Positions 2,975 through 25,978 of a stretch of 64,000 nt of DNA are shown piece after piece. Positions within the stretch are counted from its first letter, which is position 1, and every line of letters begins with the position of its first letter. The stretch spans positions 33,164,216 through 33,228,215 of the forward strand of contig OX388352.1 in NCBI GenBank assembly GCA_947579665.1, read 5' to 3'. The stretch comes from Sympetrum striolatum. Its lineage: Eukaryota; Arthropoda; Insecta; Odonata; Libellulidae. The position numbers and the translations under genes are program-made. A model generated the notes under the pieces. That model was not told the DNA's origin. It did not search any database and saw only the letters and a list, made by a program, of their open reading frames with translations.

Positions 2975-3199
2975 GCGGTATAACGACAGTATTGCGTTAA
3001 GTGATGTGAATGATAAGGATTCAGTAAAATAATACAAAAGCTAAAACGAATACAATACTAAGCAAGATTAATATCAAAACTTAGTGCTCGCAAACAATTA
3101 GATACTGTTCAAATTACATATATTTATTTCTGCGTGTTATCTAAATACTAATATTTATGTTTCAGTTATTTTTTTATATTTTATTACTCTCCTACATTT

Positions 3200-3600
3200 T
3201 TATTGCTCTTGATTTCGAAAACCAGTACCAACACTTACTCCTTGAGTCCGTGCATCCATGATTTTGCTGGTTTACCTTCTGATGTCGATGAAGGGGGAAG
3301 GGAGGATTTGGGGAGAATACATAACGCCCTAAGGAGTGGACCCGGCCAGATCAGGGTGGCGTGCAATGGGGTGCATCCTCATGCCTAAGGATCTCCCCTT
3401 TACCACCCTTAGCTGGTTAACCGCGGGCTCCGACCTCATAGACAGAAAGATCGAACTGGTGAGAAGAGAGGGCTAGCCTCTCCCCAGCAAAAGAAGGTGA
3501 AAGAAAGGGCCCTGGAAAAGATGCCTGCATCTGTAGGCTATTCGGCTAGGGTTGAGAGGAGTAAGGCATTACTCCCTCTTCCCCTACAGAGCAGGTAGTT
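3200..3600 (+). repeat. GC-rich core of left outer arm
   Basis: A GC-rich block of about 400 bp that stands out sharply from AT-rich flanks. It is nearly identical to 23135-23530 on the other strand, clearly closer than the flanks of the same duplication. It holds a 61-codon open frame at 3203-3388 that differs from its twin at 4 of 61 residues, with no family I recognise. A short palindrome, GGAGTAA...TTACTCC, lies near 3557. It may be the 5' part of a non-LTR element or a region kept alike by gene conversion. Coding status is doubtful because the frame is short and ends without a splice donor I can defend. Confidence 0.6.
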
Positions 3601-3959
3601 AATACATAAAGATGCACTTCATTTAAAGCTGCAGCCACTACATTAATATTTGGATTGGCTGAAATTGACTGCAAATTATTTTAAGGAGTTTAGAAATTAT
3701 TGACTATAAAGTATTTAATGACTTACTGGAACCATTAATTGCCAAGGTTAAAATTTAAAATCATATTTGATTCGATTTAAAGACAAAAATGTTAAATTAT
3801 TTGATTATTAATGATATCTTAGAATGAAAAAGTGTGTATAAGAAGCTAATATTTCAAATGGAAAAAATGCCTCATTATCTATGGCAAATTAAATTTATTT
3901 GAACAATAAGAGGCAATTATGCAATTGCAAAATTAACAGTAAATATAGGTAGTACTCAC

Positions 3960-3995
3960 AAGGGTACATCGGCAGTTTAAGATTCAGCACTTACC
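3960..3995 (-). pseudogene. Microexon-like element, left copy (interrupted)
   Basis: On the minus strand a pyrimidine-rich stretch ending in AG precedes a 36-nt segment followed by GTGAGT (complement at 3954-3959). The right-arm twin at 22719-22760 has the same acceptor and donor and is 42 nt, so the length difference is 6 nt, in frame. In the only frame open in the twin, this copy has a TAA after GTA AGT GCT GAA TCT. It is therefore broken if the element is coding. The first bases GGTAAGTG could themselves be a splice donor, so the exon call is tentative. Confidence 0.35.
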
Positions 3996-4799
3996 CTGTA
4001 AAGAAAGGAAGAAAATAATGAATATCAAAGGATAATTTCTTTAAATGTATAAATCTATGAATGTATGTACATAAATAACTTAAACGAATTATTATAGTTA
4101 TAAATGTTTTTCTTCTTATGTTTATTATGGAGCAGTACTGTGCAAATATGAGAAATCACTATTTCCCTAAATTTTACCCAGTTGAGATTACTTTGGAACC
4201 AGTTTCATTCCACAAAAAAAATTCTTTCGGATTTTCAAGCATGTTTGGAGACAAGATATTAATTTAGGCTACTTCATAATTTTCTCCGGATGCTGGATCA
4301 ATATAAACCTGCGGTAGATATAGTGCGGGATAACTATCAATGAAGTCAAAGGGGTTACCTATTTCCCTATACTGAGATAGGTAGCGCCTTCGCCTTCATG
4401 TAGAAATTAGGAAGATAAATGTTACATATGGGACTAGATATATAGATTTGTTTAAGCTTCTACAAGCTATATATTTAAACCTTGATAGTATCATAAGGTA
4501 GATTACTCTATTGTTTAAAAGAAAAGTTTTATTTATACCATTCCCCGTCAGAACATTTTTCCATAGGTTGCACTACAATAATTTTAAGGGAAACAACCAT
4601 TTGTTAAAGAATATATCCCAACATTGAGAATGATATTCAAATCTCGAAGAAATAACAGAAAACCGAGATGTATTAGTATATAGATGTCCTTAATTTTATA
4701 TATACATTTATCTGCTATCAGTACTTTTTATGAAAATGCGTGTTTTTCGAATATTAATGTCATAAATTTGCTGATAGGATGGCGATATAATATTCAGAG

Positions 4800-4840
4800 A
4801 TACATATATCCTGGGTTCGACTCCAAATAATTCGAAGGTA
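4800..4840 (+). repeat. Isolated B-box-like core
   Basis: TCCTGGGTTCGACTCC, near 4810-4825, matches the core of the tandem array units. Flanks are too diverged to assign a full unit. Confidence 0.3.
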
Positions 4841-5834
4841 CTATCATGCGGCGTGTAAATACTGACGGTGTGTAGGACGAATTTCATTTTCAAAATTAAA
4901 GTATAAATTACGTTCCTATGTAATCGAGTTAAGTACCAAATGAACGGGAACGAAATACATTTTTTACGATGCGATATTCGTAAACGGATTTCTTAGTAAC
5001 TTCGCAGTTGTAAACAAAGCATTTTCTTACAACCAAGATGATTGTTAAATCTGAGCTCATGCAATTATCCGTAAGTATACACGGTGACCATAATTTATAA
5101 TTAGTCTAAATAAAATGTTAGAGGAGAAAGTTTTTGTCATATAAGCATATACATGTATTTTTATTTCATGCAAATAATTGGGGAAATATTTCTTCTTATT
5201 TACAGATAACGTATTAGAAATTTCATTATCAATTCATCCAATACCAAATCTTTTGAAGAGTAATGTCTTATGAAGAATATAAATCAGAAATGTGTTAATT
5301 ACTTCTGGAATAGCAATATGCTTTCTTGCATGGGATAATTCCCGTTACAGAGACATTTATGAAGACATTACATCAAACTCGACTTTCTAAGGTGATACCT
5401 AATAAATGCATAGGTAAATATCATATTATTGACAACAAGTACGATGATAGCTAATGCGTAGCATAAGATATCCGAAGCTGGTTTTAGACGTACTCTGGAG
5501 TTGATGAAATGACTATGTTAAAATGCTCCGCGGTGAAAGGAGTTAAAATTACGATAAAGCTAGCAGACTAACTCCGTAAAATCGCTTTGATAAAATTCTT
5601 TGTTTCCATTTAGATAGAAATTAGAGGGAGTAACAGGAAAATACACTGAAAGGAATGTAAAAATAATATGAAATGGAACTCTCTCTTATTCTTAATGTAC
5701 AAGAACGCGAAAAAATGATAATATTAAATGCATTTTCTGGTTGAGGATAAAGAACAAGTCTGTCATGAACTTCAATCAAATAGGTAAAAAAGATCGAAGG
5801 CCACAGTAGACACACTTTGGATCTAAGAATTTAT

Positions 5835-5905
5835 TTCGCGGAAGCCAAACTCGATTTTCTTATAATAATATGAAAGCGAAAGCAACGGAAAGGGAAAACA
5901 AAATA
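5835..5905 (+). repeat. Short direct duplicate, copy 1
   Basis: A CTCGATTTTC followed by an AAAGCGAAAG...CGGAAAGGGAAA run matches 7015-7090 with scattered changes. The copies lie about 1.2 kb apart in the same orientation. No gene content. Confidence 0.45.
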
Positions 5906-7014
5906 TCAGTGGGCTTTGGTGAAAACTTGTACTGAATGGGGAAGTTTAGTTCAAGGACTACTTAGAGAATTGTAAACAGAACGCGGCGGGGAAATTGAGT
6001 ATTTCTAACAAAATAAATAATACCAGCTGATAGATAAGAAAAAATTAGATAATTGCTTTAAAAGGACTTCAAAATGTACGAGTCGTAAATGTGAATATCG
6101 TAAACACTTCCGAAGTAGGCCATTTCTTTTTGAAATCGAAAGTTTGTATCCAAAACAAATGAATATCGAAACCATCATTATCATCTACTTAAAATTTAAA
6201 GTGGTTCCTACTAGAAATATGCAATTCTAAAACAACTTTGCCAATGATTTTTTTATGCTTGAACATCTTCCCTTTTCTGCGCGAGAAAAATTAAAAAAGC
6301 ACTCCACTTCATTTTTAGATTTGTGGCCGTGGACTCATTTATCAATCCATACGCTCCTTTACTGCAAACAGTAATTCACAAAAAGAAAAGGAAGAGGCAA
6401 AAGCATACATGATAGCTATCAAACGACTGCAGAAAACTGTAATGACCGTGAATGGTCCATCTTAGCCAAATATCTTCCTACATTTTGTGCCATTTACAAT
6501 GAAAAATAATATTTTCCATTGTCTTGATTGTCATTATTCTTTAACGGTTTGTTTCTATTGTCTATCCTCAGCTTTTTTTTCCTTTATTTTGCAAATAGTG
6601 TTGCTCACTTAAGTCATGAAATACTGCCAAGAAGACTATACATGAAAGCCTGAACAAAAATATTAAAACTTAAATGGAAGGTATCCCATAAGAATATTCA
6701 ATAACTAATTCTTAGGGATATATTTAGATATTTGATAATGAATTAGTAACAGATAAATGCGCCCTTTCATGTCGAGCGCCGTATAACAACAATAAATCTG
6801 ATTCATTTAGAAGTAATTAAACAAATGAATGCCAGCCATTTAGTCTGGAATAAACTTCGTTCCCGTGAAGCGCACAATGTAAGTAGTATCTTGATTCTAA
6901 AGATCACAAGTGTATGGTTTCTAAAGTAGGAGAAAGTCGGCCACGAATTTAGGATACAAAGGCAAAAAAGCTGAAGGTCGTTGGGGACCATTATCGGTCG
7001 GCTCTATGGAATTT

Positions 7015-7090
7015 GTTTATGTAAGATAATCTCGATTTTCGGAGAAAACTTTAAAGCGAAAGTAACAGAAAGGGAAAGCAAAATATGAAT
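7015..7090 (+). repeat. Short direct duplicate, copy 2
   Basis: Partner of 5835-5905. The intervening DNA shows no further colinear similarity that I could see. Confidence 0.45.
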
Positions 7091-7311
7091 GGCCATATCG
7101 TAATTACGCGAAATTCCACGCCCTTTGGGCCATGGAGATAATGCGAAAAGGAAAGTACATGTTTGTTACCAAGAATAATGACTCGGAAACGTCATTAGAA
7201 GCAAAAAAATGTGCTTTAGATCAAGAATGAGGTTGAAAAATAATTATACTTTGGTTTCATGACTGTCAACGAAGAATATTACATCTAGATAGCGAACTTT
7301 TTTTTACATTG

Positions 7312-7524
7312 TAAGCCACTGTTGCCCTTTATCGGTAAAGTCCCCCTAAGCTCTCATGAACTTGTCAGGGGGTGCTTCACCGTGGCAACAGAAACAGCGA
7401 ACACACACAATCATTCCCCGATCGGGAAAATCCGACCAGCCGGGTCTCGAACCCGGGACCTCGGGGTTTGGAGTAATAGCGTAGATGGAATGCTATACAC
7501 TCCGCCACCTAGACCGGTTTGATC
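7312..7524 (-). mobile_element. tRNA-derived SINE, family A
   Basis: On the minus strand the head carries a Pol III A box TGGCGGAGTG (complement 7498-7507) and a perfect B box GGGTTCGAGACC (within 7442-7454). The intervening length suits a tRNA with a long variable arm. The tRNA-like head is followed by an unrelated body ending near 7312 (CTGACAAGTTCATGAG, then CCGATAAAGGGC). A truncated relative of the body is at 48312-48372. The plus-strand open frame 7322-7522 is an accident of this element. Confidence 0.8.
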
Positions 7525-9189
7525 TACAATATGGAAGGAACAAAATTTCAAAGGAAAGTTAACAAATATTAAGATGTGAAAAGAAATCTTAACGGGGATG
7601 ATTTTGAAACAAAAAAATGATAAATGAGATTCACTGAGCCAAGGGGTTTCATTATTCATGAAGGTTACAGAAACAATCAGATAAGTTTGCACGTGTAGTA
7701 TGTCCTCTTCTCAATCATAAAAGAACTTTTATTATTATTACAATAGACCACTCCAAAGAAGGAGATACAGAGAGGAAGAGAAAATATTACTGGATCGAAA
7801 TGACAATGAAACACATCAAGTAAATTTTACTGAAATGTTAAACATGCAAGATTTGTCTTAACTTATCACAAAATGTATTTTAAATAAGTGAAAAGGGTTT
7901 GATATGTAAATATTAGTCAAATACGAGTTTCTTTCTTATTAGCAAAAGAATTTTGTTATTCGAAAGGCACAAATAGAGACATTAGGATTTAGACAAATGT
8001 AAATTACAATGTGACTTTATATGTCGACTCCAACAACGGAATTGTAATAGGACGAAGAAAGTAATCCTTATTTAAACACCACAGTTTTATTATTATATTA
8101 TTGTTGCTAATTATTATATGGTATAGATATAAAGAAACAAAATATTTTGATTTTCTGTGCGTATGCGGCAAGGTGAACGAAAGCGCATTTCAAACTTCGG
8201 AACTCGCAGCAGGAGACGTGAAGGCCAAATAAAAGCGTGTTTTTCGAAAAAAGACGATTTACGTAAGGCTAGATTCCTGTTTACCGCATAAAGTTATACT
8301 CTTCTCTTTAAAGATAAACGGATAAAATGTTTATTGAGATGGAATTACTACATACAAAAGCACATAACTCAGTACGTTAAATTGGTATAATAAAGAAATA
8401 ATGATACTTGAAACACGAAGCTCTGTGATAACTACTAATATTTGAGACATCAATAAAGAAACCAAGTAACAAAGGATTAACCAAATTCCAACAGGATTGT
8501 CTATAGGACCCCACTTATTAATTCGAGTAACTCTATCACTGCTGATAACGTTCGAATGTTTAATAGGATTGTCGATGAATTTACACCCAGCATAATAACG
8601 AATCGATTGATACAGAAGGCAGACAATAGCAGAGAAAAAGATTAAAGTAATTGAAACAATTTGTCGTATTGGATGCTTAATGACATGTCTTTGTAACTGT
8701 TTGATTCAATTTTAACTTAGCCTTCCCTTTAATTTTCGACAACGCACAAAAGGTTTTAGGAAAGCGACTATGAAGAATTATATTGTGGAATTTACAAATT
8801 ATTATTTCTGTAAAACTTAAAACTCTAAAAGTTAATGTAATATACGAATGAAAGTCTTTAAAGTTAGTATACAGTCACTCAAATTCTGCGCTTTGACATT
8901 CGAGATTAAAATACGTCCCTCGGGCATAAGTCCGCAACAAAAGTAAAATAAAACAATGAATTGGTGAAACAATTCCAGCGTCATCAATGAATAAGCAGAT
9001 AACTTCCAATCCTCTGAAAGGGCCCTCGGCTATGTCTCTAACATGCTCCCATTATTTGCAAGTAGAGCTGTGATTATCTCATACGAGTTGCTTGCATTCT
9101 GCAAGCATATTGATGTTATAAATTTCAAGTCGATATCATATCGGGAAGGTCCTTAAACTTAATTTGTATTTTCCCTTTGAAATCTATGG

Positions 9190-9420
9190 TAGAATACAAA
9201 TGGTGCCCCAGGGTCGAACCAATAATCATAAGGTAAAAGATTATTTTTTTCTAAAGATAACTGTCGTTAAAGAAAATTCTGTTTTATGAAACATTCATTA
9301 CTTCTGTTCACATGCCTGGCCATGTAATTTCCACCTTCTCGGTAAATAAATCATACAAAATGGATTCCCGCCATACATTTCAAATGATAGCCGCCTGGTC
9401 TCGAACCCAGGACATTTTGG
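9190..9420 (-). repeat. Two further B-box repeat units, opposite strand
   Basis: Minus-strand cores GGTTCGACCC (near 9212) and GGGTTCGAGACC (near 9400) are 188 bp apart. The sequence after the second, including ATGGCGGGAAT, resembles the unit after the 10857 core (ATGGCGGGGAT). These are the same family as the 10840-11710 array but in the other orientation. Confidence 0.5.
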
Positions 9421-10039: not shown

Positions 10040-10720
10040 ATTAACTTTGTATATGTTATGGAGCACTTATGTAGAAACAAAAATAATTGCGTTTATGATA
10101 CTGTCATAAAATTGATAGACAGAAAAAGTATTGCATGCGACTTTTTACGATATGGGTATGATGAAAAGTATACACGCGCCTGATAGTCTTAACACTAGTT
10201 AAAGCAAAATCTAAAATAGCACATTCACAAGGGCATTCCAATAGAATCCGAAATGTCATAATGTTATATTGTAGTTCATTCATGTTATTGAATCATTTAA
10301 GAAGTAGAGGGTTGTAAAGTTAAAACGAAATTGCTCATTTGCCCTACAAATGGTAATATTCCATATTCACCTATAATATCAAAATTAATTAAGAAAATAT
10401 TCGCTAAGTCTTTTTAATTACATAGACAAAGTCTTAGACGGAAATCATCAAAACCAATAAAAAGAAATCATCTTTGAAAATACAATTCTTCGATAAAGTG
10501 TAAATATAAATTCTCCTTACCTAATAAGTTGAAGTCCCGGTCGCAGGTGTCCATGAAACTCTTCGGTGATCTCTTTAACGACCTTCGCATTTGAAACACG
10601 AGAGACGTACACCAGAAAATCAGCGAAAGGAGGACCTTTATGCTTGAAATCTAGAAAAAAATTAAAATATCTATTATATATAGATGCTTCTCCGGATTCA
10701 TTCATATATCATATATTCAT
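10040..10720 (+). repeat. Left middle arm of the palindrome (L2)
   Basis: Matches the reverse complement of 20180-20815, including the exon-like block and its flanks. A run at 10200-10300 and its twin at 20580-20680 share most bases. The arm ends inward where a 165-bp-unit tandem array starts. Confidence 0.8.
10521..10650 (-). CDS. Exon-like block, left gene copy
   Basis: On the minus strand an acceptor with a T-rich tract ending TTTCTAG (complement at 10651-10652) precedes a 130-nt segment that ends ATTAG|GTAAGG (donor complement 10515-10520). One frame is open through the whole segment. It begins FKHKGPPFADFL, continues VSNAKVVKEITEEFHGHLRP and ends GLQLI plus two leftover bases. There is no in-frame ATG, so it would be internal. 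It is homologous to 20191-20331 and 18782-18907, but each of the three copies is open in a different frame. That means at most one can preserve the ancestral protein. I do not recognise the peptide. Confidence 0.35.
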
Positions 10721-10739
10721 ATATATATATATATATATA
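10719..10739. repeat. (AT)n microsatellite
   Basis: About ten AT dinucleotides at the inner edge of the left middle arm, at the junction with the B-box tandem array. Confidence 0.9.
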
Positions 10740-10839
10740 GAGAGGATACAAAGTCACAGGCTAAACCACTAGCGTCAATGGCTTGAAATTTTTACGACAA
10801 ATTGGCCATAACGTATAACCTCCAGAAAAATTGCGATTT

Positions 10840-11710
10840 TGAACCTCAGTGTCATGGGTTCGATTCCAGAGGGCCCCAAAGTCGCGATTTTCCCCATAAG
10901 ATTACATGGCGGGGATTTTCGAAAATTTTTTTGAGGCACTTCCCGGAATAGCAGAGAGTTGAAACTCGAGGGACCGCTAAATGTCGTGCATAGCCAACGA
11001 AAATCGGAAAGACATCTTCGAATATTGTCCTTGGTTCGATGCTAGGCCGGGGCAAAAATCGGCCGTTTAAAATGCATTGCGGCGATTTTTAAGATTTTTT
11101 TTGGATCCTTTCCCGATAACATGGATTATTGAAACTCGGCACGTCGATAGATATCATGAATTTATTTCATAATCGAATTTTACATATTAGCTTATGGTCC
11201 TTGGTTCGATCCCAGAGGACCATTTGCACTTCCCAATGCTTTTCTTACGGAGATAACGGAAACAAATTTTAGGTACTTCCCGGCACGATATCAACTTCAA
11301 ACTTTGCATGTACAAAGATCAAGTCCAGACAAATCAAACAGTGCATTCACAGCTATCAAAGAGTCCTGGGTTCGACACCAGGTGTCTCTGCAATCGGAAG
11401 TTAATCCGATTTTTAGGAATTATTTTGAAACCTTTGCCAATAATATAGAAACTTCAAATTCGGCATATAGATAGAGATCATAAATAACTTTCAGAAACAT
11501 TTTTTAGATTTCCAAGATCGTCCTTGGTTCGAATCCAGAGAGCCATTTAAATTCGTAAAAATTAGAACGTCTTTTGAGGCAGTTGTAGCCCATATTTCTG
11601 CTTGAATTTTCACACATCGTTAGAGATGGTGATGTTCTATTGTGCTGCATAGTAAGTTCACAGTAAAGACCCGGGTTCGATGCCGGACGATGGAATTTAG
11701 GCAAATTTTA
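10840..11710 (+). repeat. Degenerate tandem array with a T-arm/B-box motif in each unit
   Basis: A GGTTCGA core with flanking complementary bases recurs at about 10857, 11036, 11202, 11367, 11526 and 11673, so unit lengths are roughly 179, 166, 165, 159 and 147 bp. Between cores the units share poorly conserved stretches such as TTTTTTGAGGCACTTCCCGG and TTGAAACTCG. Several cores form a small hairpin resembling a tRNA T arm (for example TGGTCC...GGACCA around TTGGTTCGATCCCAG at 11195-11222). The core matches the RNA polymerase III B box GGTTCGANNCC. Strong drift outside the core shows the array is old. It is inserted in the left arm only. Confidence 0.7.
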
Positions 11711-11864
11711 AGAAAAATTTCAATCTTTTTTTTTCTTTTGATGGCCGTCCGGATATGATGCCGACATGAAAATAGTGTTGTCGATCTGCTTGCAGTATGC
11801 AAGCAACATTTTACTCGTAATTAATACAAGTATACATAAAATATAAGTATTACATAAAATAATT

Positions 11865-11995
11865 CTTATCATGTAAATATTCTAATGAATATGAATAATA
11901 AGCTGCAACCTTGAGCATGTAAAGAAATGACCGATATGATAGGAGACTTTCTAAGGAGATTTCAGTTAGACTAATGTCAGCATTTACATTCGCCA
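11865..11995 (+). repeat. Left middle-inner arm piece (L3)
   Basis: Matches the reverse complement of 20040-20170, including the stretch read on the minus strand as GAAATCTCCTTAGAAAGTC. On the right this piece is directly joined to the exon block. On the left it is separated from the exon block by about 1.1 kb holding the tandem array, which dates the array as a later insertion (or the right side as a later deletion). Confidence 0.7.
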
Positions 11996-12059
11996 ACTAT
12001 GAAAGGTCGCTGTGTCTCTAACATGCTCCAAGTGTTATCACAAGTGCTGATCATTAATT

Positions 12060-14170
12060 CATCCTTTTACTATAGTTAAGTCGAACTTCGGTTCAGAAAG
12101 AGAAAAATTACGCATTCATACTGACAAGTACAAATCGTATCAAATTCTAAAAAATGCGTATAGTTTATACCATATACCAGATGCACAAAAAAACTGTAAG
12201 AATTACACTACTAATATAAGAAGTACCTAAACTTGATACATGAAATTTCCGAACTACTCGAAATAATATAATCATATAATTAAAATAAAATTATTGGAAT
12301 CTAAGCTCGCTAAAACAATTATGAATAAACTTGGATATACATAAAATTATTCCGGATTGGGGAAGCGATTCAGTTATTTTCGATAGCATGTAACCGTTAC
12401 ATTCAAAATAATGTTTTCCGTTATTCTATATTACAAAATATTTACTAAATATCATGCGAAAGCTAAGGTTCGATGAATTTCTTTTTCGTACGCTTTGTAA
12501 CTTAAAATTCAGCGTAAAAGGCATACGCCTTTCATTGAAAATGTCAGCATCGAATAAACTTTATAATATTTTGTGACGACGATCATTTACAGACATATCA
12601 ATACGTGCTTATCAAGTCGGATTGCTAATAAATCGGATAGTAAGAACACGCGTGATTAAATAAAATACACGATGAAGAAAAAGAAGTAACCTTCTATCTC
12701 TAAAGACGACTGAACTGAGTGACCTTCTCATAGAGAAAGGAACGCGAGGCATCTAAAGTTAGTAACGTCGACACTTGATCTATCAGCATTTACAAATGGC
12801 AAGAGAAAATACTTCTTTAATAGGATATCAATAATATGAAATTCTATTCAGTTAACTAAATCAACTTAGCATATATATGATCCTAAGTCGTGGCCAAGGT
12901 AATTTTGAAACCATGGAAAAGCATCCACTAATTAAAAACAATAATTACTTAGCAAATAACAATAAGTATAAGATAAATGGCTAGCCTTTACAAGTACGCT
13001 CCCATCACAAAGGTTACGATGTTAACGCAAGTCGGTTAAATTCATTACTAAAGTTTTTTTTAGAAAATTCGGTAGCAGGTAATTTGAAATTATAGAAAAC
13101 ATGAATGCAGTAGGATATTTACTTGAGAATTATTTAATATACAATGGTAGGGTAAAACTTAATAAGAACTTATTTCAAATGCCAATAACCGTTACATTCA
13201 TCAAACGATTTCCGTTTTTTCTACTGTTGGAGGTATTTGCTAAATATCACACAAGATTTTGAAAATAAGTCATTTTTCACATTCTTTTTAAATTATAAAA
13301 AATAATAAACGTCCCTTTTTTTAATTTAAGCTTTGATTTGATATTCTGAAACTCATTTACGACGAAAACTAACAAACTTACGTTAGGTAATTATCTAATC
13401 GAGTAATTACTATGAAGTGGAAGCTTATAGAAAACGGAATACAAGATAACGAGATAGAATTCTTTCAGTCTTCAGTGACGACTGAGCTTAATGACCAACA
13501 CATGACACGGAAAATAACACAACGAAGGAACTTAAAATATCATAAATTCCAACTCAAGGTAGAAAATACTCCTTCGATAAGAGACAATCAATTCAATTAA
13601 GACATTTTATGCAACACACCATGTAGAAGAAATCCTTTGTTAAGTTCACGGATATTTTAACACACGGAAATTTTTTCTCTCATTCCGTTGACAAATAATC
13701 ACGATCGAGAATAATTATTTCTAAAAAGAAGAACCCTTGACTTCAGGGACACAAATTAATAACAAAAAATGTCGTTAAACTTTAAAAATATCGTTCCGAT
13801 TCCGAGGTTCCGCAAATAACGCAAGTAGGTAAGTTTAAATATAACGGTGTTTTCCAGAAAAGCCAGAAAAGGTACTCACCTGAAGAAATCCGGACAACGA
13901 CTGAGAAATTTTCCGTTTGAACAATGTTTGAACACTATTCTTGTCCTGTGATTGGTCCATTTCGAATTCGCTGTGATTGGCCCAGCCCACCTTCCGTTTT
14001 TATAATTTTATAATAAAAACTTTTAATTAATTTAAAAGCCAATTCATTTAGAAATTCTTGAAATTGAATTTTAAAATTTCTCGAACTTCTTTATTTTTGT
14101 AAATGTTAATTTTACCCTTTACGATTATTATTACAACTACTCTTAATCTATGAACAAACGAGTGGGAAAA
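12060..14170 (+). repeat. Left inner arm of the palindrome (L4)
   Basis: Almost colinear with the reverse complement of 16390-18500; paired positions sum to about 30560-30600 throughout. Comparing 13412-13620 with its partner at 16950-17160 gives about 90 percent identity with a few small indels. It contains the left promoter and first exon-like segment (13874-13980). The open frame at 13412-13600 lies inside the arm, is degraded in the twin by an indel, and is not a gene. Confidence 0.9.
13874..13980 (-). promoter_or_regulatory. Left outward promoter with 5' exon and donor
   Basis: On the minus strand, two CCAAT boxes (complements ATTGG at 13976-13980 and 13951-13955) lie about 74 and 49 bases upstream of an initiator-like TCAGTC (13904 down to 13899). 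A short segment of about 23 nt ending TTCAG follows, then the splice donor GTGAGT (complement 13874-13879). CCAAT pairs are NF-Y sites, and TCAGT is the common arthropod initiator. The same arrangement and spacing occurs in mirror image at 16577-16683. No TATA box is obvious. The transcript would run left, away from the palindrome centre. Confidence 0.55.
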
Positions 14171-14229
14171 GCGCATTGGTACACTCAAAGGATTAACATG
14201 GATATTTTCTTAGTATTTCATTAAATAAA

Positions 14230-16330
14230 CGGATCTTTTTCCTTTCTACTATATTTGCTTAAGGAAACTGATGATCGTATTTATGATAAATAAAATATGT
14301 TCTTTTATGGTTAGATACCCTTTTCTAAATGAAATTAAGAAACTCCTTCAATCGGAAATTTTTCGTATACTATACTGCAATGATAATGAAAGTTGTGCAC
14401 ATAAATCCCATCAAAAAGAACACTCTAAGTATATAGTTGGACACTCTCTTTGGTTTATATTGCATTATTATAAATATCTTCTCTAAGGAACAGAATTTCA
14501 ACATTCATACCTTCTGTGTGTTTCCTCTTCAACTCCTTTCCTTAGCTTTTTATCTCACATTGGTAATTTGGTAGATATACTCCGTATTTTAGTTGTTACT
14601 ACTTATACAGTTATCGATAACATTCGCTTTTACCACTATCACACACAGATGACACAATTAAGGTGTTGAGTTATATATACTGTAGCACCACTCTTTTTAA
14701 CTATTTATACCAGTTGGAGGGATATCACAAGAGAGAAGGCGTAACTGTAACTACGAAGAAATTCCTTCGAACATTTCTCCGGTAGATTCATGTGTCCGAT
14801 TTTCTTAGCATTGAAGGAACATTCACAAGAGAAACTTGCTGGTATTTTAGAAGTAGGTAATGGCCGCCATTATGAGAACAAAAACGAGGACTGACAGCAA
14901 TGAGGCAAACATTTCTGAATTCTTTTGAAATGCCATTTACGTGATTCAGGTTTTTCAAGACGATCGATTTTTGGAAAGCGCGGGAATGGTCATGTTATCG
15001 CCTCGTGGTGTATGGAGAATATTTGAAGAGCCAAAGTTGAGTAAATTTTAAGTTATAATTATTTTTTATGTATTTAAAGCGAATTTGTTTTTCGGGATCA
15101 AGATTGAGTGTCCTTATGGATATACGTTTTGCTGTGAATGTGCTACAACAACGACGAACAACACCAAATCAACTCCGGGATACCCAGAAATGCTTGGTTT
15201 TAGAGCAGAGTTAATTCTATAATCAGTGATTATATTAAATAGGGGTGAACTAGTGTAGAATTCGAAATCAGTGATTGAAGATCGTCAATGAAGGACAACC
15301 TAAGAATGTTTCACCTTCGTACACGCACATATTGCCTTCAGTGGTACATGACATAAATGTAAGTATGGAATGAATGATATATAATTATACATGTACATTG
15401 TCAATCAGTGTGAAGTTTCCGACTAAATGTCATAGCCTAACAAGGAGTTCCTATTAGTTACAATCGGATACTTTGACGGAACGAGTTATGTTGTTGAGCC
15501 AGGAAGGATAGCAGCATTTTCGATGCTGTATATTCAATTTATCGGTTGATTCCATTGTCAGCCACGGTCTTTCTATTTAGAAATAGATGTAAATGGTAAC
15601 GAAATTTAATCTGAATGTTAATTCATAAATCTATCAAGTTCTATAATCTCCAGTTTTGTAACGTTTCATTTTAGCATTACTTTGATTGGTACACAGGTTG
15701 TTTTGGAGGTATATCAGTGGAAACATTAGCTCGAGACTGGTAAATTCTAGACCTCTTCACCATTAGCTGTAATTCATTTAGTAGACGAAATGAGGCCATC
15801 TGGATAATATGAGGGGTGAGGCAGATATGCCATGGTTTTCTCGCAGGTTAGGAAGAGTTAGTGAAACTTCAGATCAATTATTACTAAAACATATTGCATA
15901 GCCATAACAATCTACATCAAGAGCAGGCACAAATACCATGTTTATATCATTAGCTTGCATATTTCCACTGCTATTAACAGGAAAAAACTAAGGGTTAGAT
16001 AGTCATTTATGCTTCTGCAAAACAATAATGGGTATAACGGCATAGTAATTGTTTATATAAATCAATTAATTGTGCCCGTAAGCAAATCCTATTCTTTCGT
16101 TTATGGAAAATGAGGTATTTTAATGCAAGATAGATCGGCAATTAGAATTTTTCATATAAATATCAAGGATTAAAAACTTAATTGTGGCCATCCTAGTGTA
16201 ATATTATAACGATCTGAATTATTGAATTTATACTCGTATGTGCTACTATATCGCCAAATTATCGTGAAGTTTAACTAAATAAAATTTTAAAAAATCATTC
16301 CAAGAAAATAAAATTCAATTTCAACAATAC
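14230..16330. promoter_or_regulatory. Unique centre of the palindrome with housekeeping-type promoter motifs
   Basis: No counterpart of this 2.1 kb is seen elsewhere in the window. It contains a perfect TATCGATA (14612-14619), the DRE motif bound by DREF in flies. It also contains a YY1/Pho-like AATGGCCGCCATTATG (14859-14874) and an E2F-like GCGCGGGAA (14978-14986). An ATG at 14986 opens 21 codons to a stop. The combination is typical of TATA-less housekeeping promoters, so a bidirectional regulatory centre is possible. No gene body was found, and open frames here (for example 14271-14486) have no coding support. Confidence 0.35.
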
Positions 16331-16389
16331 CTAATCTAATTTTCTATTTATTCATAATTTAAAAAAACGGATGTATTACCATTTACTTA

Positions 16390-18500
16390 CCCCACTCATT
16401 TGTTCATAGATTACGTAGTTGTAACAATAAACGAAAGGTTTAACATAAGTATATTTATAAGAAAATTAAGCAAATAAAAATGTTAAATTTCAATTTTAAG
16501 AAAACCTAATTGTATTGTTTATTAAATAATTTAAATCTATTGATTATAAAATTATAAAAACGGAAGGTGGGCTGGGCCAATCACAGCGAATTCGAAATGG
16601 ACCAATCACAGGACCAGAATAGTGTTCAAAAATTGTTCAAACGGTAAATTTCTCAGTCGCTGTCCGGATTTCTTCAGGTGAGTACCTTTTCTGGCTTTTC
16701 TGGAAAACACCGTTATATTTAAACTTACCTACTGGCTTTAATTGAGGAACCTCGGAAAAGAAACGATATTTTTTAAGTCTAACGACATTCTTTGTTATAT
16801 TTTTATGTTCCTGAAGTCAAGGGATCTTTTTTTTCGAAATACTTATCCTCGATCGTGGTTATTTGTCATCGGAAGGAGAGAGAAAGAATTTCCGTGAGAT
16901 AAGATATCCGTTACGGTAATAAAGGATTTTTACTACATGGTGTGTTGCATAAAATATCTTAATTGAGCTAATTGTCTCTTATCAAAGGAATATTTTCTAC
17001 CTTGAGTTGGAATTTATGATATTTTAAGTTCCTTCATTGCGTAATATTGGTGCGTAATTTTCCGTGTTTATGAGTTGGTCATTAAGCTCAGTCGTCCCTG
17101 AAGACAGAAAGAATCCTATCTCGTTATCTTGTATTCCGTTTTCTATAAGCTTCCACTTCATAGTAATCACTCGATTTGATAATTACGTAACGTAAGTTTG
17201 TTAGTTTTCGTCGTAAACGAGTGTCACAATATCAAATCAAAGCTTATATTAGAAATAAAAAACGTACATTTGTAACGGTTAATTTTACTATAATTTAAAA
17301 AGAATGTGAAAAATGACTTACTTTCAAAATCTTGCGTGATATTTAGCAAATACCTCCAACAGTAGAAAAACGGAAATCTTTTGATGAATGTAACGGTTAT
17401 TGGCATTTGAAATTAGTTCGTATTAAGCTTTACCCTACTATTAGAAATAAATATTAAATAATTCTCAAGTAAATATCCTAATGCATTCATGTTTTCTATA
17501 ATTTCAAATTACCTGCTACTGATTTTTTCTGGAAAAATAACTTGCATTGAAGTTCATCGACTTGCGTTAATATCGTAACCTATTGAATTGGAGGGTACTT
17601 GTTAAGGCTAGTGATTTATTTTGTACTTATTGTTATTCGTTTAGTGATTATTGTTTTAGATTGTAGAATGTTTGAAGGCGTCAAGAATTTCGTGGTTACA
17701 AAATAGGTTATCGTAATTATGGTTAGTTGGTTAAGGTATCCGAATAGAATATAATTTTGTTTGTCTTGCAACCAAGAAATATTTTCTGTTGCTATTTGTT
17801 AATGTTGATAGGTCAAGTGTCGACGTTACTAACTTTAGGTGCCTCGCGTTCCTTTCTGTATGAGAAGGTCATTCAGTTCAGTCGTCTTTACAGATAGAAG
17901 GTTGCTTATTTTTCTTCATCGTGTATTTTTATTAAATCGCGCGTGTTCTTACTATTCGATTTAGTAGCAATCCGATTTGATAAGCACGTAATGATATGTC
18001 CGTAAATAATCGTCGTAATATAATACCAGCAAGTTTAATAGCTGCTTAAATTACTAATGACAATCATAAGTAAAGTAAAGCATAATCTTGAACTATCGCG
18101 TTGTTTTTATCAAATTACTCGAACAATAGAATAACGGAAAACGGATATTTTGAATGTAACGGTTATAGGTCATCGAAAATAACAGAGCCACTTTCCTAAT
18201 CTATAATAGTTTAATTTATTTCCTATTACATTATATTTCATTTATAATAAGTTCATTCGTTATTTTTTTAGCGAGTTTAGATTAAATTAAATAAGATTTA
18301 AATTGATTAATGGATTATATTATTCCGAGTCGTTTGAATATTTCATATATCAAGTATAGTTATTTCTTATATGAGTAGTGTAATTTTTCAGTTTATTGTG
18401 CATCCGATTTAACCTACTTCTACCCTTTTGAATTTGATTCAATTTGGTACTCGTTAATATGTTAGCGGAATGTTTCTCCTGAACCGAAGTTCGAAATTTA
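16390..18500 (-). repeat. Right inner arm of the palindrome (R4)
   Basis: Reverse complement of 12060-14170. It holds the right promoter and first exon-like segment (16577-16683). The rest is intron-like AT-rich sequence conserved only because of the duplication. Confidence 0.9.
16577..16683 (+). promoter_or_regulatory. Right outward promoter with 5' exon and donor
   Basis: Two CCAAT boxes (16577-16581 and 16602-16606) share the context CCAATCACAG and lie about 74 and 49 bases upstream of an initiator-like TCAGTC (16653-16658). A segment ending TTCAG at 16677 is followed by the consensus donor GTGAGT (16678-16683). This fits a short noncoding first exon spliced to the signal-peptide exon at 18782. 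The mirrored copy at 13874-13980 keeps every one of these motifs while bases between them have changed, which mildly supports function. Confidence 0.6.
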
Positions 18501-18589
18501 CTGTCGTAAAAGTCTATGAATGTTCAATTACTGAATTTCCCGAAGGCTTCGTCATCAGAACTTCATATCCTGATTTATGATACTGCACT

Positions 18590-18965
18590 GCAATAAAGAG
18601 TAAATCGTTATTTTTTGTAGCGTGTATAACGGATGTGTCGATTTTAAAGTAACGGAAATCTCATTTGAATATTACTGCTCAAATTGTAAACGTCGATACA
18701 TGTCCAACGCTTCAGAGTATAATATTTACCCGATTGCTATTATTTAATATTATTTTATTTTAAATTTTTCCAAATTTTCAGCAATTTCAACCTACCCTTC
18801 CGATGTTTTACTGGTTTGTGCTTCTCTCGTGTCTCAAATCAAAGGTCGTTGAAAGTGATCGTCACGGAAGAGGCTCGAGGACACAGACAGCCGCGGCTTC
18901 AAACCAGGTAATTACAATTTATCTATATTTTTATCAATATTAAGTTTATTTTTATTGATCATATC
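18590..18965 (+). repeat. Tandem exon-bearing duplicate, copy 1
   Basis: This piece and 20030-20350 are diverged direct copies about 1.4 kb apart. They share an ACGGAAATCTC stretch, an AATATTTACC run, a pyrimidine tract, and the exon with its acceptor and donor. By position within the palindrome, copy 1 is the partner expected for the left exon at 10521-10650, yet in sequence the left exon is closer to copy 2. Confidence 0.65.
18782..18907 (+). CDS. Candidate first coding exon of a secreted peptide
   Basis: A pyrimidine-rich tract ending TTTTCAG (AG at 18780-18781) precedes a 126-nt segment that ends CCAG|GTAATT at 18907. An ATG at 18803 opens 35 codons to the donor, phase 0. The first residues, MFYWFVLLSCLKSKVVES, look like a signal peptide: an aromatic/aliphatic core, a cysteine and small residues before a charged stretch. 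The remainder is basic and rich in Ser, Thr and Ala. It lies about 2.1 kb downstream of the promoter and donor at 16577-16683 on the same strand. The two sister copies (20191-20331 and 10521-10650) lack this ATG frame. No family is recognised and the downstream exons are not established; the start is the first ATG in the segment. Confidence 0.4.
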
Positions 18966-20029
18966 TTTATTTTATTTGATTTCAAATTCATGTCTATCAC
19001 TTACGTAATTAAAGAGACTTGAATTTGGGAGTTCCGAACGCAGTATACAAGTATAATTGAACGACTTTTTCGAAGTAACCAGTAGGAGCAAGGACACACG
19101 GTGAAATTAGTTTATTAAAGTTATAACAATTTTTAGAGTATAGTAATAATAGTAATATAAAATTATTTAGTACTGCCGCCTCGCCTTTTTTATGGTTAAT
19201 TTTTATTCACAACAATTAAGTTGCTAAATAGATCGACTGCCTTTTTGTAATTTCAAGTTGTTCTTCAAGATTATTTTAACGTTAAGTTCCTATTAATAAA
19301 GATCAAGCCTTGTATATTTAATGCATTTCGCATTCGTCCAAAACCTTTACAAAATATTTTACCCCTCAATCAGAGCTTTTTTATTATAAGAGAATATATT
19401 TGATCGCTTCTTTACTTCAATATATATAGCATATGCTAATCAACGAATTTCGTTTAGTTGAAAGTAGTAACACACAAAAAAATATAATCAAAGCTCTACT
19501 GGCAAATATTGGGAGCACGTCAGAGACATATTCGAGGGCCCTTTTAGAGGATTTGAAGTTCTCTGCTTATTGTTTGATGACATATGAATTGTTACACCAA
19601 TTTTTTATTTTGATTTTGCCGCGAACCTATACTTACATAATGTATGTCTTGGTGCATTCATAACATTTTTGCTAGCCTTGATTCGGATAGTTAAAGTACT
19701 ATTACTGAATTTTATTGGTGTATTTTGTTCGGGTTTTTATGGTGATGTTACATAAACATAGTATAACTGAGAAGTTTATTTCTCTCTCAGTATTTTTTCA
19801 TCGGTATAGATAAGGCTGCGTCGATTCTTTTGAATATTATTATAATCGCTACTCATCATCATAGGTAACTAATGTTTCTTCTTCTAAATCGAAATTGGAA
19901 TTTCACTGTCCTATAAGATTTCATAAAAGCTCAACTAATGAATTATTAAAAACATTAGTCACCAGTATTTAACTCCCTGGTTGATTTTCATGCTTATAGT
20001 TCAGGTTTATTAAGTAGCGATTCTTAATA

Positions 20030-20350
20030 GTAAGTGGAAAGAAATGCTGACATTAATGTAACGGAAATCTCCTCAGAAAGTCGCCTATCACATCGGTCAT
20101 GTCTTTACAAGCTCAAGGCTGTAGATTAGAATATTTACCTAATAGCAATTATTTTATGTGATATTAATTTCATATTCATTTTTTTTCTAGATTTCAAGTA
20201 TAGTCAATAGCCCCTACTTTCGCTGTTTTACTGGAATGTGCATCTCTCGTGTCTCAAAAGCGAAGGTCGTTGAAGACATTAGTCACGGAAGAGTTTCGTG
20301 GACACCTGCGACCGGGACTTCAACTTATTAGGTAAGGAGAATTTATATTT
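20030..20350 (+). repeat. Tandem exon-bearing duplicate, copy 2
   Basis: Direct, diverged copy of 18590-18965. It also pairs in inverted orientation with the left arm in two pieces: 20180-20350 with the left exon block at 10521-10690, and 20040-20170 with 11865-11995. Confidence 0.65.
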
Positions 20351-20815
20351 ACATTCAATCGAATAATTTTATTTTCAAAGATGATTTCTTTTTATTGGTT
20401 TTGATGATTTGCGTCTAAGACTTCGTCTATGTAATTTAAAAGACTTAGCGAATATTTTCTTAATTAATTTTGATATTATAGAAGAGCTCTAGTGAATATA
20501 GAATATTACCGTTAGTTAGGCAAATGAGCAATTTCGTTTTGACTTTAAACCCTCTACTTCTTAAATGATTCAATAACATTAATGAACTACAATATAACAT
20601 TATGACATCTCGGCTTCTATTGGAATACCCTTGCGAATGTGCTATTTTAGATTTTGCTTTAATTAGTGTTACGAAATGATCATACACCAATATCGTAAAA
20701 AGTCGCATGCAATATTTTTTCTGCCGATCAATTTATGACAGTATTATAAACATAATGATTTTGGTTTCTACATAAGTGCTCCATATTATATAAAAGCATA
20801 TTGCCGATTCTTCCT
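20180..20815 (-). repeat. Right middle arm of the palindrome (R2)
   Basis: Reverse complement of 10040-10720. Similarity stops near 20815, just before a decayed LINE fragment at 20960-21460 that sits between the middle and outer arms on this side. Confidence 0.8.
20191..20331 (+). pseudogene. Exon-like block, right copy 2 (frame disrupted)
   Basis: A run of T ending TTTCTAG (AG at 20189-20190) precedes a 141-nt segment that ends ATTAG|GTAAGG at 20331. Both splice sites are strong. Aligned with 18782-18907, the position of the ATG has become CTG and the frame then meets TGA. Aligned with the left copy, the frame is shifted by a 4-base difference in the middle. The 3' part still encodes a stretch ending RGHLRPGLQLI like the left exon. 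It is either a decayed exon or a noncoding exon. Confidence 0.45.
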
Positions 20816-20959
20816 GTGCTATTTAGCCTCATCTGTCCTTTTTTTTCCTAATTTTAACTTCTCATCGTGATCACCCTGCGTTGAATAATTTGGTTTTTCT
20901 AATCTGTAACTTTATTCCCACTATTCTTCAGCAGCGTTTTTTCTTGAAAAACTTCCTTC

Positions 20960-21460
20960 TTCACCTTCCTATTTTTTTCTTAAGTTTCCCACCCAAGAAT
21001 TTCTAACATTTCTCTCCTTATTGTGTCGATTTAATATATACCCTGCTGCTTTCTGTTGCACCCATTCCATTTTCTTTATATTAGTTAGGCCGTACGGATC
21101 CCATACGTTTGTCGCATTTTCTACTATAGGCCCTTTTATTGTTTTGTATCCTAAGTCTTTCGCTTCCCTACTAGCTCCCTTTAAGTTGCTCATCACGTCA
21201 TGGAAATGTTTAAATGTTTTAGAGATTACTTTATCAATGTGATTACCCCAATCCCATATTTTGGAAATCCAACCGTTAAGTACTTACAGTCTTTTACCTT
21301 GGGATCTTTTTCTACGTTAACCTCGTATGTGACTTCTCTTTCCCTCATACTATTCGCGAAGGTAATGTGTTTGCACTATTTTACAATTATTTCCAGTCTA
21401 TTTACCGTTGCCCACTTCTCAACCGCTTTAATGTTACGTCACTGCTTTTATTAGGGCGAG
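20960..21460 (-). mobile_element. LINE reverse transcriptase C-terminal fragment
   Basis: The minus strand encodes a region containing YKTIKGPIVENATNVWDPYG and then IKKMEWVQQKAAGYILNR. This matches the conserved segment after the RT domain of CR1/Jockey-type LINEs (typically a Y..L..P.LEY....WDP...I..IE.VQRRAARF pattern). Upstream, HIDKVISKTFKHFHDVMSNL fits the preceding segment, but stops and shifts are present. It is an old, broken piece, of a different subfamily from the 25985 and 36203 copies, and lies between the middle and outer right arms of the palindrome. Confidence 0.7.
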
Positions 21461-22718
21461 ATATTAGACTTTAGAGTCTCTTTTTACATCCAACGCTTTC
21501 TCGTATAAAATTTAAAAAAGGGCTAGAAAAAGTTAAACAGAAGAGCGGTTAAACAGAACAGAACGGGTCACAGAAAGAGGCAAAGGAAATTATTGTTTGA
21601 TGAAGCTAATTGTAAATATAACGAGAATTCTATAGAGAATCCTTTATCGTAAACTTTATCAAGAGTGCTAGAGTTTTTAAATTTAATTAAAAGAGTGCCG
21701 CAGATTGGACTCATTATTTTCAATTATTACTATCAATTATTATTATTAATATGACTTAAATACTTAGTATTCCCGATTTAACATGTCGAATTATATGCCA
21801 TTGTAAGAAGTAATTCCGTGCTACTTAGAATCTGATTATTATGTTGTTAATAAAGGAGAATATCGTTACACAGGAAAATGAATCTAGCCTTACGATACTT
21901 GTCCGTTTTCTACTGAAAGTGACCTTCACGGCTTCTGCAGCGCATTCCTGTGTACAAAATTCACTTTCGTTAACTTCGCTACACAAACGTAGATATGGAA
22001 ATTTGACATTGTTTGGTATGATATATTATGATGACCGACATGTGGGAATTTGAGAGCCATAGAGCCATTTGAGACAGTTTGTTTTTATTATGTTTGAATG
22101 TATTTACAACTCAGTCTCAGTTAAATTAATATTATTTTGTAGGAAAAGTTTAAAGACCAGCTAATCCTGTGGCTAAATTATAAAGAATGACATTTAACAT
22201 TTGCAAGTCATTAAGACTGCAATTGCACCTTTGTTTTGCAGCATTGCTTAGTAAAGAGAATTATAGCTTTTTCTTGAAGTGAACGATGAAAATAATAAAA
22301 ATTACAACAGCTACTGTAAATTAACAATTCCAGTTACAGAATATTTACATGTCCACTGCAGTATTTTCTTTGACCTTTGGTTTATTAATTGAAAATGATT
22401 TTGATTCAATCTATAGTCTTAGTTCAGCATTCTTATATGCCTTACAATGTATGACGCAAACTCTCGTTTAAACTCTTAATGTTCTGGATGTAAACGAGTT
22501 AGGATGTATCTTCGAATGTTAATACCAAGTAGCTAGGTCATTTGAATGTAGAACTATTTTACTATTGGATACTATTTAAAACAAACATTATAAGGAAAAG
22601 ATTAACATACAGCTATGTCTTGATAGTAATTTATTTAGGATATCTATTTACTTTCATATATAGTTATGCTTTAAAAGTAATTACCTTTTTATTTATTCTT
22701 TCATTCCTTTCTTTGCAG

Positions 22719-22760
22719 GGTAAGTGCTGAATCTAAAGCTCCAGATTGGGTTATACCCTT
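22719..22760 (+). CDS. Candidate microexon, right gene copy
   Basis: A 42-nt segment preceded by a long pyrimidine tract ending TTTGCAG and followed by GTGAGT. One frame is open and reads VSAESKAPDWVIP followed by a split codon. It needs two leftover bases from the preceding exon. The exon-like block at 20191-20331 ends with that phase (ATT AG|GTAAGG), but the upstream signal-peptide exon (18782-18907) ends in phase 0, so at least one joining step is unexplained. Splice sites at both ends are conserved in the inverted twin at 3960-3995. An alternative is that GGTAAGTG marks the end of a different exon. Confidence 0.35.
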
Positions 22761-23134
22761 GTGAGTAAAACCAGTCTTCATTATTAATTTTGAAATTGCA
22801 TTTGTGCCTCCATTTAGTTGATAGAATATTATTTGCCATACATAATGAGGCATATTTCCTTTTGAAATAACAGTTTTCTATTAAAAATATTTCATTCATT
22901 CTCATTCATTCACATCTAAAGACATCACTAGTAGTCAAATAATTTCACAAATTTGTCTTTAAATCGAATTAAATGTGATTTTAAACCATGACAAGTAATT
23001 GTTCCAGTAAGTCATTAAATACTTTCTAGTCAATAATTTCTGAACTCCTAAAATAATTTGCAGTCAATTTCTGCCAATCCAAATATTAATTTCGTGGCTG
23101 CAGCTTTAATGAAATGCATCTTAATGTATTAACT

Positions 23135-23530
23135 ACCTGCTCTGTAGGGGAAGAGGGAGTAATGCCTTACTCCTCTCAACCCTAGCCGAAAGGCCTACAG
23201 ATGCAGGCATCTTTTCCAGGGCCCTTTCTTTCACCTTCTTTTGCTGGGGAGAGGCTAGCCCTCTCTTCTCACCAGTTCGATCTTTCTGTCTATGAGGTCG
23301 GAGCCCGCGGTTAACCAGCTAAGGGTGGTAAAGGGGAGATCCTTAGGCATGAGGATGCACCCCATTGCACGCCACCCTGATCTGGCCGGGTCCACTCCTT
23401 AGGGCGTTATGTATTCCCCCCAAATCCTCCCTTCCCCCTTCATCGACATCAGAAGGAAAACCAGCAAAAACATGGATGCACGGACTGCAGGAGTAAGTGT
23501 TGGTACTGGTTTTCGAAATCAAGAGCAATA
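23135..23530 (-). repeat. GC-rich core of right outer arm
   Basis: Twin of 3200-3600 in opposite orientation. The equivalent 61-codon frame runs 23528 to 23343 on the minus strand and stays open. Four residue changes over 61 codons with no stop is mild evidence for constraint, but recent duplication or conversion explains it as well. Differences are few and scattered, for example at 23188-23189. Confidence 0.6.
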
Positions 23531-23739
23531 AAAATGTAAAAAAATAACTGAAACATAAATATTAGTATTTAGATAACACGCAGAAATAAATGTAGGTAAT
23601 TTGAATAGTATCTGATTCTTTGCGAGCACTAAGTTTTGATATTAATCTTGCTTAGTATTGTATTCGTGTTAGCTAGTGTATTAATTTACTGAAACCTTAT
23701 CATTCACATCACTTAACGCAATACTGTTGGTATACCCCT

Positions 23740-25814: not shown

Positions 25815-25978
25815 CTTTCGTCTCCATTCGCTATGACTTCCTCCTCCCCTTTCCTCCTCATCCTCTTTCAGCTCCTCTTTAATCTCTTTCTAATAATCTC
25901 TCCTCCCCTTACACCTTAAATGCTCGACCACTCTCTCCTACAACACCTTTCCACCCTCTTACATCTTCACCTGCATTA
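25815..25978. repeat. Pyrimidine-rich tract
   Basis: About 160 bases strongly enriched in C and T on the plus strand (CTCC and TCTC runs), directly beyond the 3' end of the minus-strand LINE at 25985. It may be the purine-rich tail of the element or a pre-existing tract. Confidence 0.6.

What the first reader, a model, noticed from the sequence alone, without database searches (positions are those of the whole stretch)
2975..23735. A 20-kb interrupted palindrome with nested, diverged arms
Inverted blocks at four nested distances share a common centre near 15.28 kb and together span about 20 kb. Arms have diverged (about 3-15 percent) and gathered independent insertions, so the structure has persisted in the genome. 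Large palindromes usually either decay by deletion at the centre or are kept alike by arm-to-arm conversion, so a long-lived one with mirrored promoters is unusual.
Basis: seen in the sequence. Interest (0 to 1): 0.9.

Follow-up and report, generated by a model that had tools for sequence, protein, structure and literature searches.

The report
Mirror-image pair of likely RNA genes
A stretch of DNA from a eukaryote of unknown identity holds two diverged mirror-image copies of one segment, each predicted to be a spliced, probably non-coding gene read outward from the middle; this looks like an ordinary old inverted gene duplication, though its patchy similarity suggests that parts are likely still kept alike.

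Summary
The inverted blocks are real and far above chance. They are collinear and run further out than reported, from about 1,448 to 25,032, around a 2.2-kb spacer that does not align. They do not share one centre: the outer block's midpoint is 13,358 and the inner one's 15,287, because the left arm is about 4 kb longer. One pair (8.9/19.6 kb) is out of order and is probably a dispersed repeat. Aligned identity per block is 70-91%, in patches.

The arms read best as two head-to-head copies of one transcription unit. Each has, in mirror image, TATA and CCAAT motifs, a CAG|GTGAGT donor, an exon-2-like segment with both splice sites, and a GC-rich 3' segment (98% identical over 398 columns) ending near AATAAA. 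I found no reading frame kept open in both arms, and no Pfam or Rfam match reached its cut-off in what was scanned, so it is probably non-coding. Internal tandem duplications predate the inversion. The patchiness fits selection, arm-to-arm conversion, or both; my tests do not separate them. Divergent paralogous pairs with inverted repeats are known in Caenorhabditis (PMC1803023). Verdict: new member of a known kind. Host, copy number and relatives could not be examined.

The parts
1448..1845 (-). Left arm, outermost block (pairs with 24555-25032)
   Evidence: 70-73% of aligned columns; weakest block, 53.6 and 41.9 bits against control best 38.3
2973..4095 (-). Left arm, outer block (pairs with 22623-23740)
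   Evidence: 91.3% of 1,087 aligned columns, sharp outer edge at 2973, gradual decay towards 4095
3180..3583 (-). Predicted 3' terminal exon, left: GC-rich segment after CTCTGTAG acceptor-like site, AATAAA at 3199-3204 (minus strand)
   Evidence: 3215-3612: 8 differences and no indel in 398 columns, GC 0.51, CpG o/e 0.42; exon status predicted only
10047..10661 (-). Left arm, exon-2 block (pairs with 20180-20795)
   Evidence: 91.3% of 595 aligned columns
10521..10650 (-). Predicted exon 2, left (TTTTTTTCTAG acceptor, TTATTAG|GTAAGG donor)
   Evidence: read; splice sites shared with right arm, body differs by indels
10662..11835 (.). Left-only insertion (or right-only loss) between exon-2 block and 11836 block; holds repeated GGTTCGA-type motifs
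11836..11985 (-). Left arm, block pairing with 20042-20173
   Evidence: 87.9% of 132 aligned columns
12064..14166 (-). Left arm, inner block (pairs with 16391-18512): promoter, exon 1 and intron-1 tandem units A (12380-12930) and B (13173-13690)
   Evidence: 85.8% of 2,034 aligned columns; units A and B
13880..14012 (-). Predicted core promoter (TATAAAA at 14012 and 14004, CCAATCA at 13980 and 13955) and exon 1 ending at donor CAG|GTGAGT (motif from 13882)
   Evidence: 13875-14015 is 96.5% identical over 141 columns without indel, 80.0% upstream
14167..16390 (.). Central spacer, not alignable between arms
   Evidence: no inverted match between the arms there
16391..18512 (+). Right arm, inner block: units B (16870-17410) and A (17600-18180) of intron 1
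16545..16677 (+). Predicted core promoter (TATAAAA at 16545 and 16553, CCAATCA at 16577 and 16602) and exon 1 with donor CAG|GTGAGT (motif from 16675)
18782..18907 (+). Second exon-2-like copy (exon 2') with its own acceptor TTTTCAG and donor CAG|GTAATT, inside the right-only stretch 18513-20041
   Evidence: 66.7-69.7% to the two exon-2 regions
20042..20173 (+). Right arm, block pairing with 11836-11985
20180..20795 (+). Right arm, exon-2 block
20191..20331 (+). Predicted exon 2, right
   Evidence: read
22623..23740 (+). Right arm, outer block
23148..23550 (+). Predicted 3' terminal exon, right, AATAAA at 23527-23532
   Evidence: exon status predicted only
24555..25032 (+). Right arm, outermost block

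Best explanation
This is an inverted segmental duplication of at least 12 kb whose two diverged arms each carry, in mirror image, one copy of a predicted spliced and probably non-coding transcription unit that would be read outward from either side of a 2.2-kb spacer. Shown by sequence: collinear inverted homology; mirrored TATA and CCAAT motifs and an identical CAG|GTGAGT donor; exon-2-like segments with acceptor and donor in both arms; a GC-rich 3' segment with AATAAA in both arms; tandem duplications inside the arms that are older than the inversion; large arm-specific stretches. Inferred: an ancestral unit first gained tandem copies of exon 2 and of a roughly 0.6-kb intron-1 unit, then the whole unit was copied in inverted orientation, then the arms diverged and took up unrelated DNA, while promoter, exon 1 and the 3' segment were kept alike by selection on both copies, by arm-to-arm gene conversion, or by both. 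Untested: transcription, splicing and any function of the RNAs.
For: Collinear inverted blocks far above controls. CAGGTRAGT occurs 2 times in 64 kb on either strand, at the mirrored places 13882(-) and 16675(+); CCAATCA occurs 8 times, 4 of them mirrored in the two predicted promoters; TAACGGTTA occurs 5 times, 5 of 5 in the inner arms. TATA-to-donor region 96.5% identical with no indel against 80.0% directly upstream; 3' segment 98.0% with no indel. Tandem copies predate the inversion: unit A left-right 77.8%, unit B left-right 90.7%, A-B 59.7-60.8%; exon-2 regions left-right 88.1%, either to exon 2' 66.7-69.7%. Exon body more conserved than flanks between exon 2 and exon 2' (0.698 and 0.731 against 0.639 and 0.667). 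Probably non-coding: exon-2 copies differ by indels of several lengths; the exon-1 frame open on the left has a stop on the right (read by eye); stops in all six frames across the 3' segment; 24 translated frames gave no Pfam match at its cut-off; no Rfam match at gathering score.
Against: No transcript was seen. TATAAAA is common here (50 in 64 kb), so alone it means little; CAGGTRAGT at two copies is one homologous site, not two independent ones. Between the arms exon 2 is no more conserved than its flanks (0.877 against 0.885) and less than the following intron (10180-10517, 93.6%), which does not fit plain selection on exon 2. The 3' segment does not fold better than shuffles (minus strand z -0.83, 20 of 100 shuffles as good; plus strand z -1.63, 6 of 100). 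The exon-2 consensus fold has an unfavourable covariation term (+0.56; 9 of 30 pairs with a break or gap, 4 of 30 with a two-sided change). Pfam with X at stops is insensitive: it missed pieces that I take for reverse transcriptase, so lack of domains is weak evidence. Protein-coding exons outside the window cannot be excluded. That the 3' segment is an old inserted repeat was not excluded, because its genome copy number could not be searched.
Confidence: 0.6

Rival explanations
1. The arms are two insertions, in opposite orientation, of one long mobile element, and the exon- and promoter-like features belong to that element.
For: The window is rich in repeats; the GC-rich, CpG-poor 3' segment differs in make-up from its surroundings (GC 0.51, CpG o/e 0.42), as an inserted repeat might; genome copy number is unknown because the genome search did not complete (11 tries).
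Against: Identity varies from 64 to 100% per 50-column window, not the even divergence of two insertions of one element; homology fades outward to 70-73% instead of ending at termini; the 3' segment, exon 2 and promoter/exon 1 have no further full copies in the window, apart from exon 2' (short partial matches only).
Confidence: 0.15
2. The two arms are the 5' ends of a divergent pair of protein-coding paralogues with untranslated first exons, the coding exons lying outside 1-25 kb.
For: Non-coding exons 1 and 2 with alternative copies are common in 5' leaders (general knowledge); inverted homology reaches the left part of the window, where it may be cut off by the window edge.
Against: AATAAA after the GC-rich 3' segment in both arms suggests transcript ends there; no Pfam match in sense frames 1-4200 (-) or 25000-30600 (+), weak evidence.
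Confidence: 0.2
3. The inverted pair is a source of double-stranded RNA: read-through across the centre would give a long hairpin that is cut into small RNAs.
For: Long inverted arms; transcription through both would pair arm with arm.
Against: Predicted promoters point outward, so each transcript would hold one arm only; the loop would be at least 2.2 kb; pairing is interrupted by kilobases of unmatched DNA.
Confidence: 0.03
4. Assembly artefact: two haplotypes or a fold-back read joined in inverted orientation.
For: Such artefacts make false inverted repeats (general knowledge).
Against: Arms differ by 9-30% per block and by kilobases of unmatched sequence, and share tandem duplications older than the split; artefacts would be nearly identical.
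Confidence: 0.02

Closest known systems
Divergently oriented paralogous gene pairs with inverted-repeat intergenic regions in Caenorhabditis (PMC1803023; abstract and 12 passages seen)
   Same: Head-to-head paralogous units produced by an inverted duplication, with similarity highest in parts of the arms and faster change elsewhere; one C. briggsae case has an insertion that interrupts the arms (81.6% identity).
   Different: Those pairs code for proteins, their intergenic regions are short (446 bp with a 126-bp spacer in the main example) and their arms are mostly over 95% alike; here the units are probably non-coding, the spacer is 2.2 kb and the arms are far more diverged and interrupted.
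Large palindromes of mammalian sex chromosomes (PMC3723533, PMC8981503; search listing with abstract openings only)
   Same: Inverted duplications carrying gene copies, with arm-to-arm conversion as upkeep.
   Different: Those arms are above 99% identical throughout; here only short patches approach that.
Divergent hsp70 pair of Drosophila at 87A (recalled; the search listed no paper)
   Same: Head-to-head duplicate genes around a spacer, kept alike by conversion (recalled).
   Different: Protein-coding and much more alike (recalled).

Membership tests
Divergent (head-to-head) duplicated gene pair | Two homologous segments in inverted, collinear order | tested here: met
Divergent (head-to-head) duplicated gene pair | Each copy carries promoter and splice signals pointing outward | tested here: met
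   as sequence motifs only; transcription not testable
Divergent (head-to-head) duplicated gene pair | Both copies transcribed | not testable with these tools
   no RNA data
Long non-coding RNA gene | No conserved reading frame in the exons | tested here: met
   indels in exon 2, stops in all six frames of the 3' segment, exon-1 frame stopped in right arm (by eye); no Pfam match at cut-off in 24 frames
Long non-coding RNA gene | A known or conserved RNA structure (not required, but would support) | tested here: inconclusive
   no Rfam match at gathering score; only sub-threshold matches; folds near shuffles
Palindrome maintained by arm-to-arm gene conversion | Arms nearly identical, over 99% | tested here: not met
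   86.8% over all aligned columns
Palindrome maintained by arm-to-arm gene conversion | Tracts of raised identity beyond what even divergence gives | tested here: met
   inner block two-rate model 0.94/0.78, lnL gain 33.4; intron 1 alone 0 of 5000 shuffles as uneven; not met on their own for 10047-10517 (808 of 5000) and 2973-3214 (734 of 5000). Selection could give the same.
Palindrome maintained by arm-to-arm gene conversion | Arms closer to each other than to the orthologous arms of related species | not tested
   no related eukaryotic genome was available; the genome search did not complete

The most novel reading that the evidence does not exclude
An ancient head-to-head pair of non-coding RNA genes whose promoter, exon 1 and GC-rich 3' exon are still homogenised by arm-to-arm gene conversion across a 2.2-kb spacer, while the rest of the arms has drifted to 64-85% identity: a non-coding counterpart of the maintained inverted gene pairs of Caenorhabditis, in which conversion tracts are confined to the functional parts.
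Probability: 0.2. Interest if true: 0.55.

Novelty: new member of a known kind. Interest (0 to 1): 0.3.

Why it matters
If both copies are transcribed, the locus is a compact natural experiment on how duplicated non-coding RNA genes keep promoter, first exon and 3' segment alike while introns drift, and on whether selection or conversion does it. If they are not, it is an ordinary old inverted duplication. It also shows that an inverted repeat with a kilobase-scale spacer can survive long enough for the arms to diverge by up to 30% per block.

Tried and rejected
Rejected: a common centre (midpoints 13,358 to 16,014); the 8.9/19.6-kb pair as arm (out of order); a protein-coding pair within the arms; a known RNA family (no match at gathering score; 3 and 1 sub-threshold snoRNA-like matches judged chance); tRNA genes (0); strong RNA structure of the 3' segment; bacterial-type promoter and terminator scan, not meaningful in a eukaryote (35 found, 32.7 expected).

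Led nowhere: host identity. Two searches with reverse-transcriptase-like pieces gave one unnamed protein each (66% over 50% of the query; 59% over 59%); no PDB match. A 21-base piece of the 3' segment has 0 exact matches in viral contigs and genome contigs, which hold no animal or plant genomes as such, so this says little. Selection against conversion: if selection acts, tandem units A and B should be conserved between the arms at the same places. Site table Fisher P 0.11; windowed rho 0.28 (4 of 87 shifts as high), 0.30 (8 of 83) and 0.60 (0 of 79) for windows of 20, 30 and 40 columns: a lean towards selection, not a decision. Literature: 4 papers, none on this; 108 papers, 12 listed; 0 papers; 15 papers, 12 listed; no claim of absence from print is made.
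Full report
What was checked. The window is eukaryotic in character: 34% GC, only 4 ORFs of 100 codons or more with the longest 110, no tRNA by ARAGORN, no Rfam match at gathering score, and several stretches that I recognise by eye (recall) as reverse-transcriptase fragments, such as 26125-26370 (-) and 43719-44045 (+). The host was not identified.

The inverted blocks. A self-comparison lists 21 pairs in the whole window. The main inverted ones in the first 24 kb are 12576-14166/18016-16391, 2973-4095/23740-22623 and 10045-10661/20796-20180, with smaller ones at 12064-12429/18512-18126 and 11839-11985/20170-20042. These follow one another in strictly mirrored order. The pair 8945-9077/19617-19484 does not and is set aside as a probable dispersed repeat. 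With more sensitive settings the collinear matches score 41.9 to 1920 bits, against 28.3 to 38.3 bits for the best chance match in 20 controls. Homology continues outward at 1448-1845/24555-25032; this is the weakest part. The midpoints drift from 13,358 to 16,014, so there is no common centre. The left arm (1448-14166) is about 4 kb longer than the right (16391-25032), chiefly through 4096-10046 (5.95 kb against 1.83 kb on the right) and 10662-11835; the right arm has its own 18513-20041.

Anatomy. Read outward from the 2.2-kb spacer, both arms show the same series. First, two TATAAAA and two CCAATCA motifs, then an exon-1-like stretch ending in CAG|GTGAGT. This nine-base donor consensus occurs 2 times in 64 kb, at these mirrored places. 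The stretch from TATA to donor is 96.5% identical with no indel, falling to 80.0% upstream. Second, in intron 1, two tandem units A and B, about 60% alike, each preceded or ended by TAACGGTTA (5 of 5 occurrences in the window lie in the inner arms). Third, an exon-2-like stretch of 130 nt (left) and 141 nt (right) between a pyrimidine-rich acceptor and a GTAAGG donor. The right arm has a further copy, exon 2' (18782-18907), with its own splice sites. Fourth, a GC-rich, CpG-poor segment (3215-3612: 8 differences in 398 columns, no indel, GC 0.51, CpG o/e 0.42), with AATAAA downstream. Promoter, exon and terminator roles are predictions from sequence.

Coding potential. Exon-2 copies differ by indels of several lengths, the frame open in left exon 1 is stopped on the right (by eye), and the 3' segment has stops in all six frames in both arms. 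Twenty-four translated frames, covering the sense strands of both arms, gave 2 Pfam matches, both below cut-off (DUF2605 E 0.11; Tudor_Coilin E 0.21). This scan missed presumed reverse-transcriptase pieces too, so it is weak. The plus strand of the left arm and most of 26-64 kb were not scanned. Non-coding is the better reading, not a proven one.

Order of events. Left and right copies of the same unit are closer (A 77.8%, B 90.7%, exon-2 region 88.1%) than different units in the same arm (A-B 60.0-60.8% within an arm; exon 2 to exon 2' 69.7%). So the tandem duplications came first and the inverted duplication after, unless conversion has made the arms look younger.

Patchy identity. In the inner block a two-rate model (0.94 and 0.78) beats one rate by 33.4 log units, with high stretches 12592-12784, 13062-13624 and 13824-14012; intron 1 alone is more uneven than 5000 of 5000 shuffles. 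The outer block is uneven too (0 of 2000 shuffles; longest identical run 224 against a median of 53). The exon-2 block is not (P 0.145 and 0.26). Selection and conversion both predict patches. For conversion or intronic constraint: intron 10180-10517 is 93.6% alike, more than exon 2 itself, and the outer block ends abruptly at 2973. For selection: the promoter-to-donor region stands out, and units A and B lean towards being conserved at the same places (rho 0.28-0.60; site test P 0.11). I cannot decide.

Structure of the RNA. The 3' segment folds about as well as shuffles. The three exon-2 copies allow a 30-pair consensus with 4 two-sided changes, but 9 pairs have a break or gap and the covariation term is unfavourable. 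No structural claim is made.

Comparison. Divergently oriented paralogous gene pairs around inverted repeats, present in three Caenorhabditis species and thought to be actively maintained, are described in PMC1803023 (abstract and 12 passages seen). The present locus is the same kind of arrangement with a longer spacer, more divergence and probably non-coding units. Sex-chromosome palindromes (PMC3723533, PMC8981503; listing and abstract openings) are far more alike in their arms. It is filed as a new member of a known kind. Interest 0.3: well-formed and informative, but the arrangement is known and no function, host or copy number could be shown.

Noticed in passing
43440-43529, 42431-42473, 61358-61438, 62643-62788: Four short self-inverted (hairpin) sequences, 89, 93, 81 and 74%; possibly foldback MITE-like elements.
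   Followed up: no
26125-26370 (-), 36252-36485 (-), 43719-44429 (+), 20972-21283 (-): Broken pieces that look by eye like non-LTR reverse transcriptase; DNA copies at 30112-30596/43849-44319 and 36184-36471/44468-44184 match at 73 and 84%. Pfam did not recognise those scanned.
   Followed up: partly
10662-11835: Left-arm-only stretch with repeated tRNA B-box-like motifs (CCTTGGTTCGAxxCCAG; 3 copies of 34 nt), perhaps a tandem SINE-like element.
   Followed up: partly
3001-4000, 22001-24000: CpG o/e is low (0.34-0.56) only in the outer blocks, and high (1.38-1.75) in the inner arm windows 12001-14000 and 17001-19000.
   Followed up: no
31882-32205: A perfect 25-base inverted repeat and short tandem arrays around an ATTCGGATAATC unit.
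   Followed up: no
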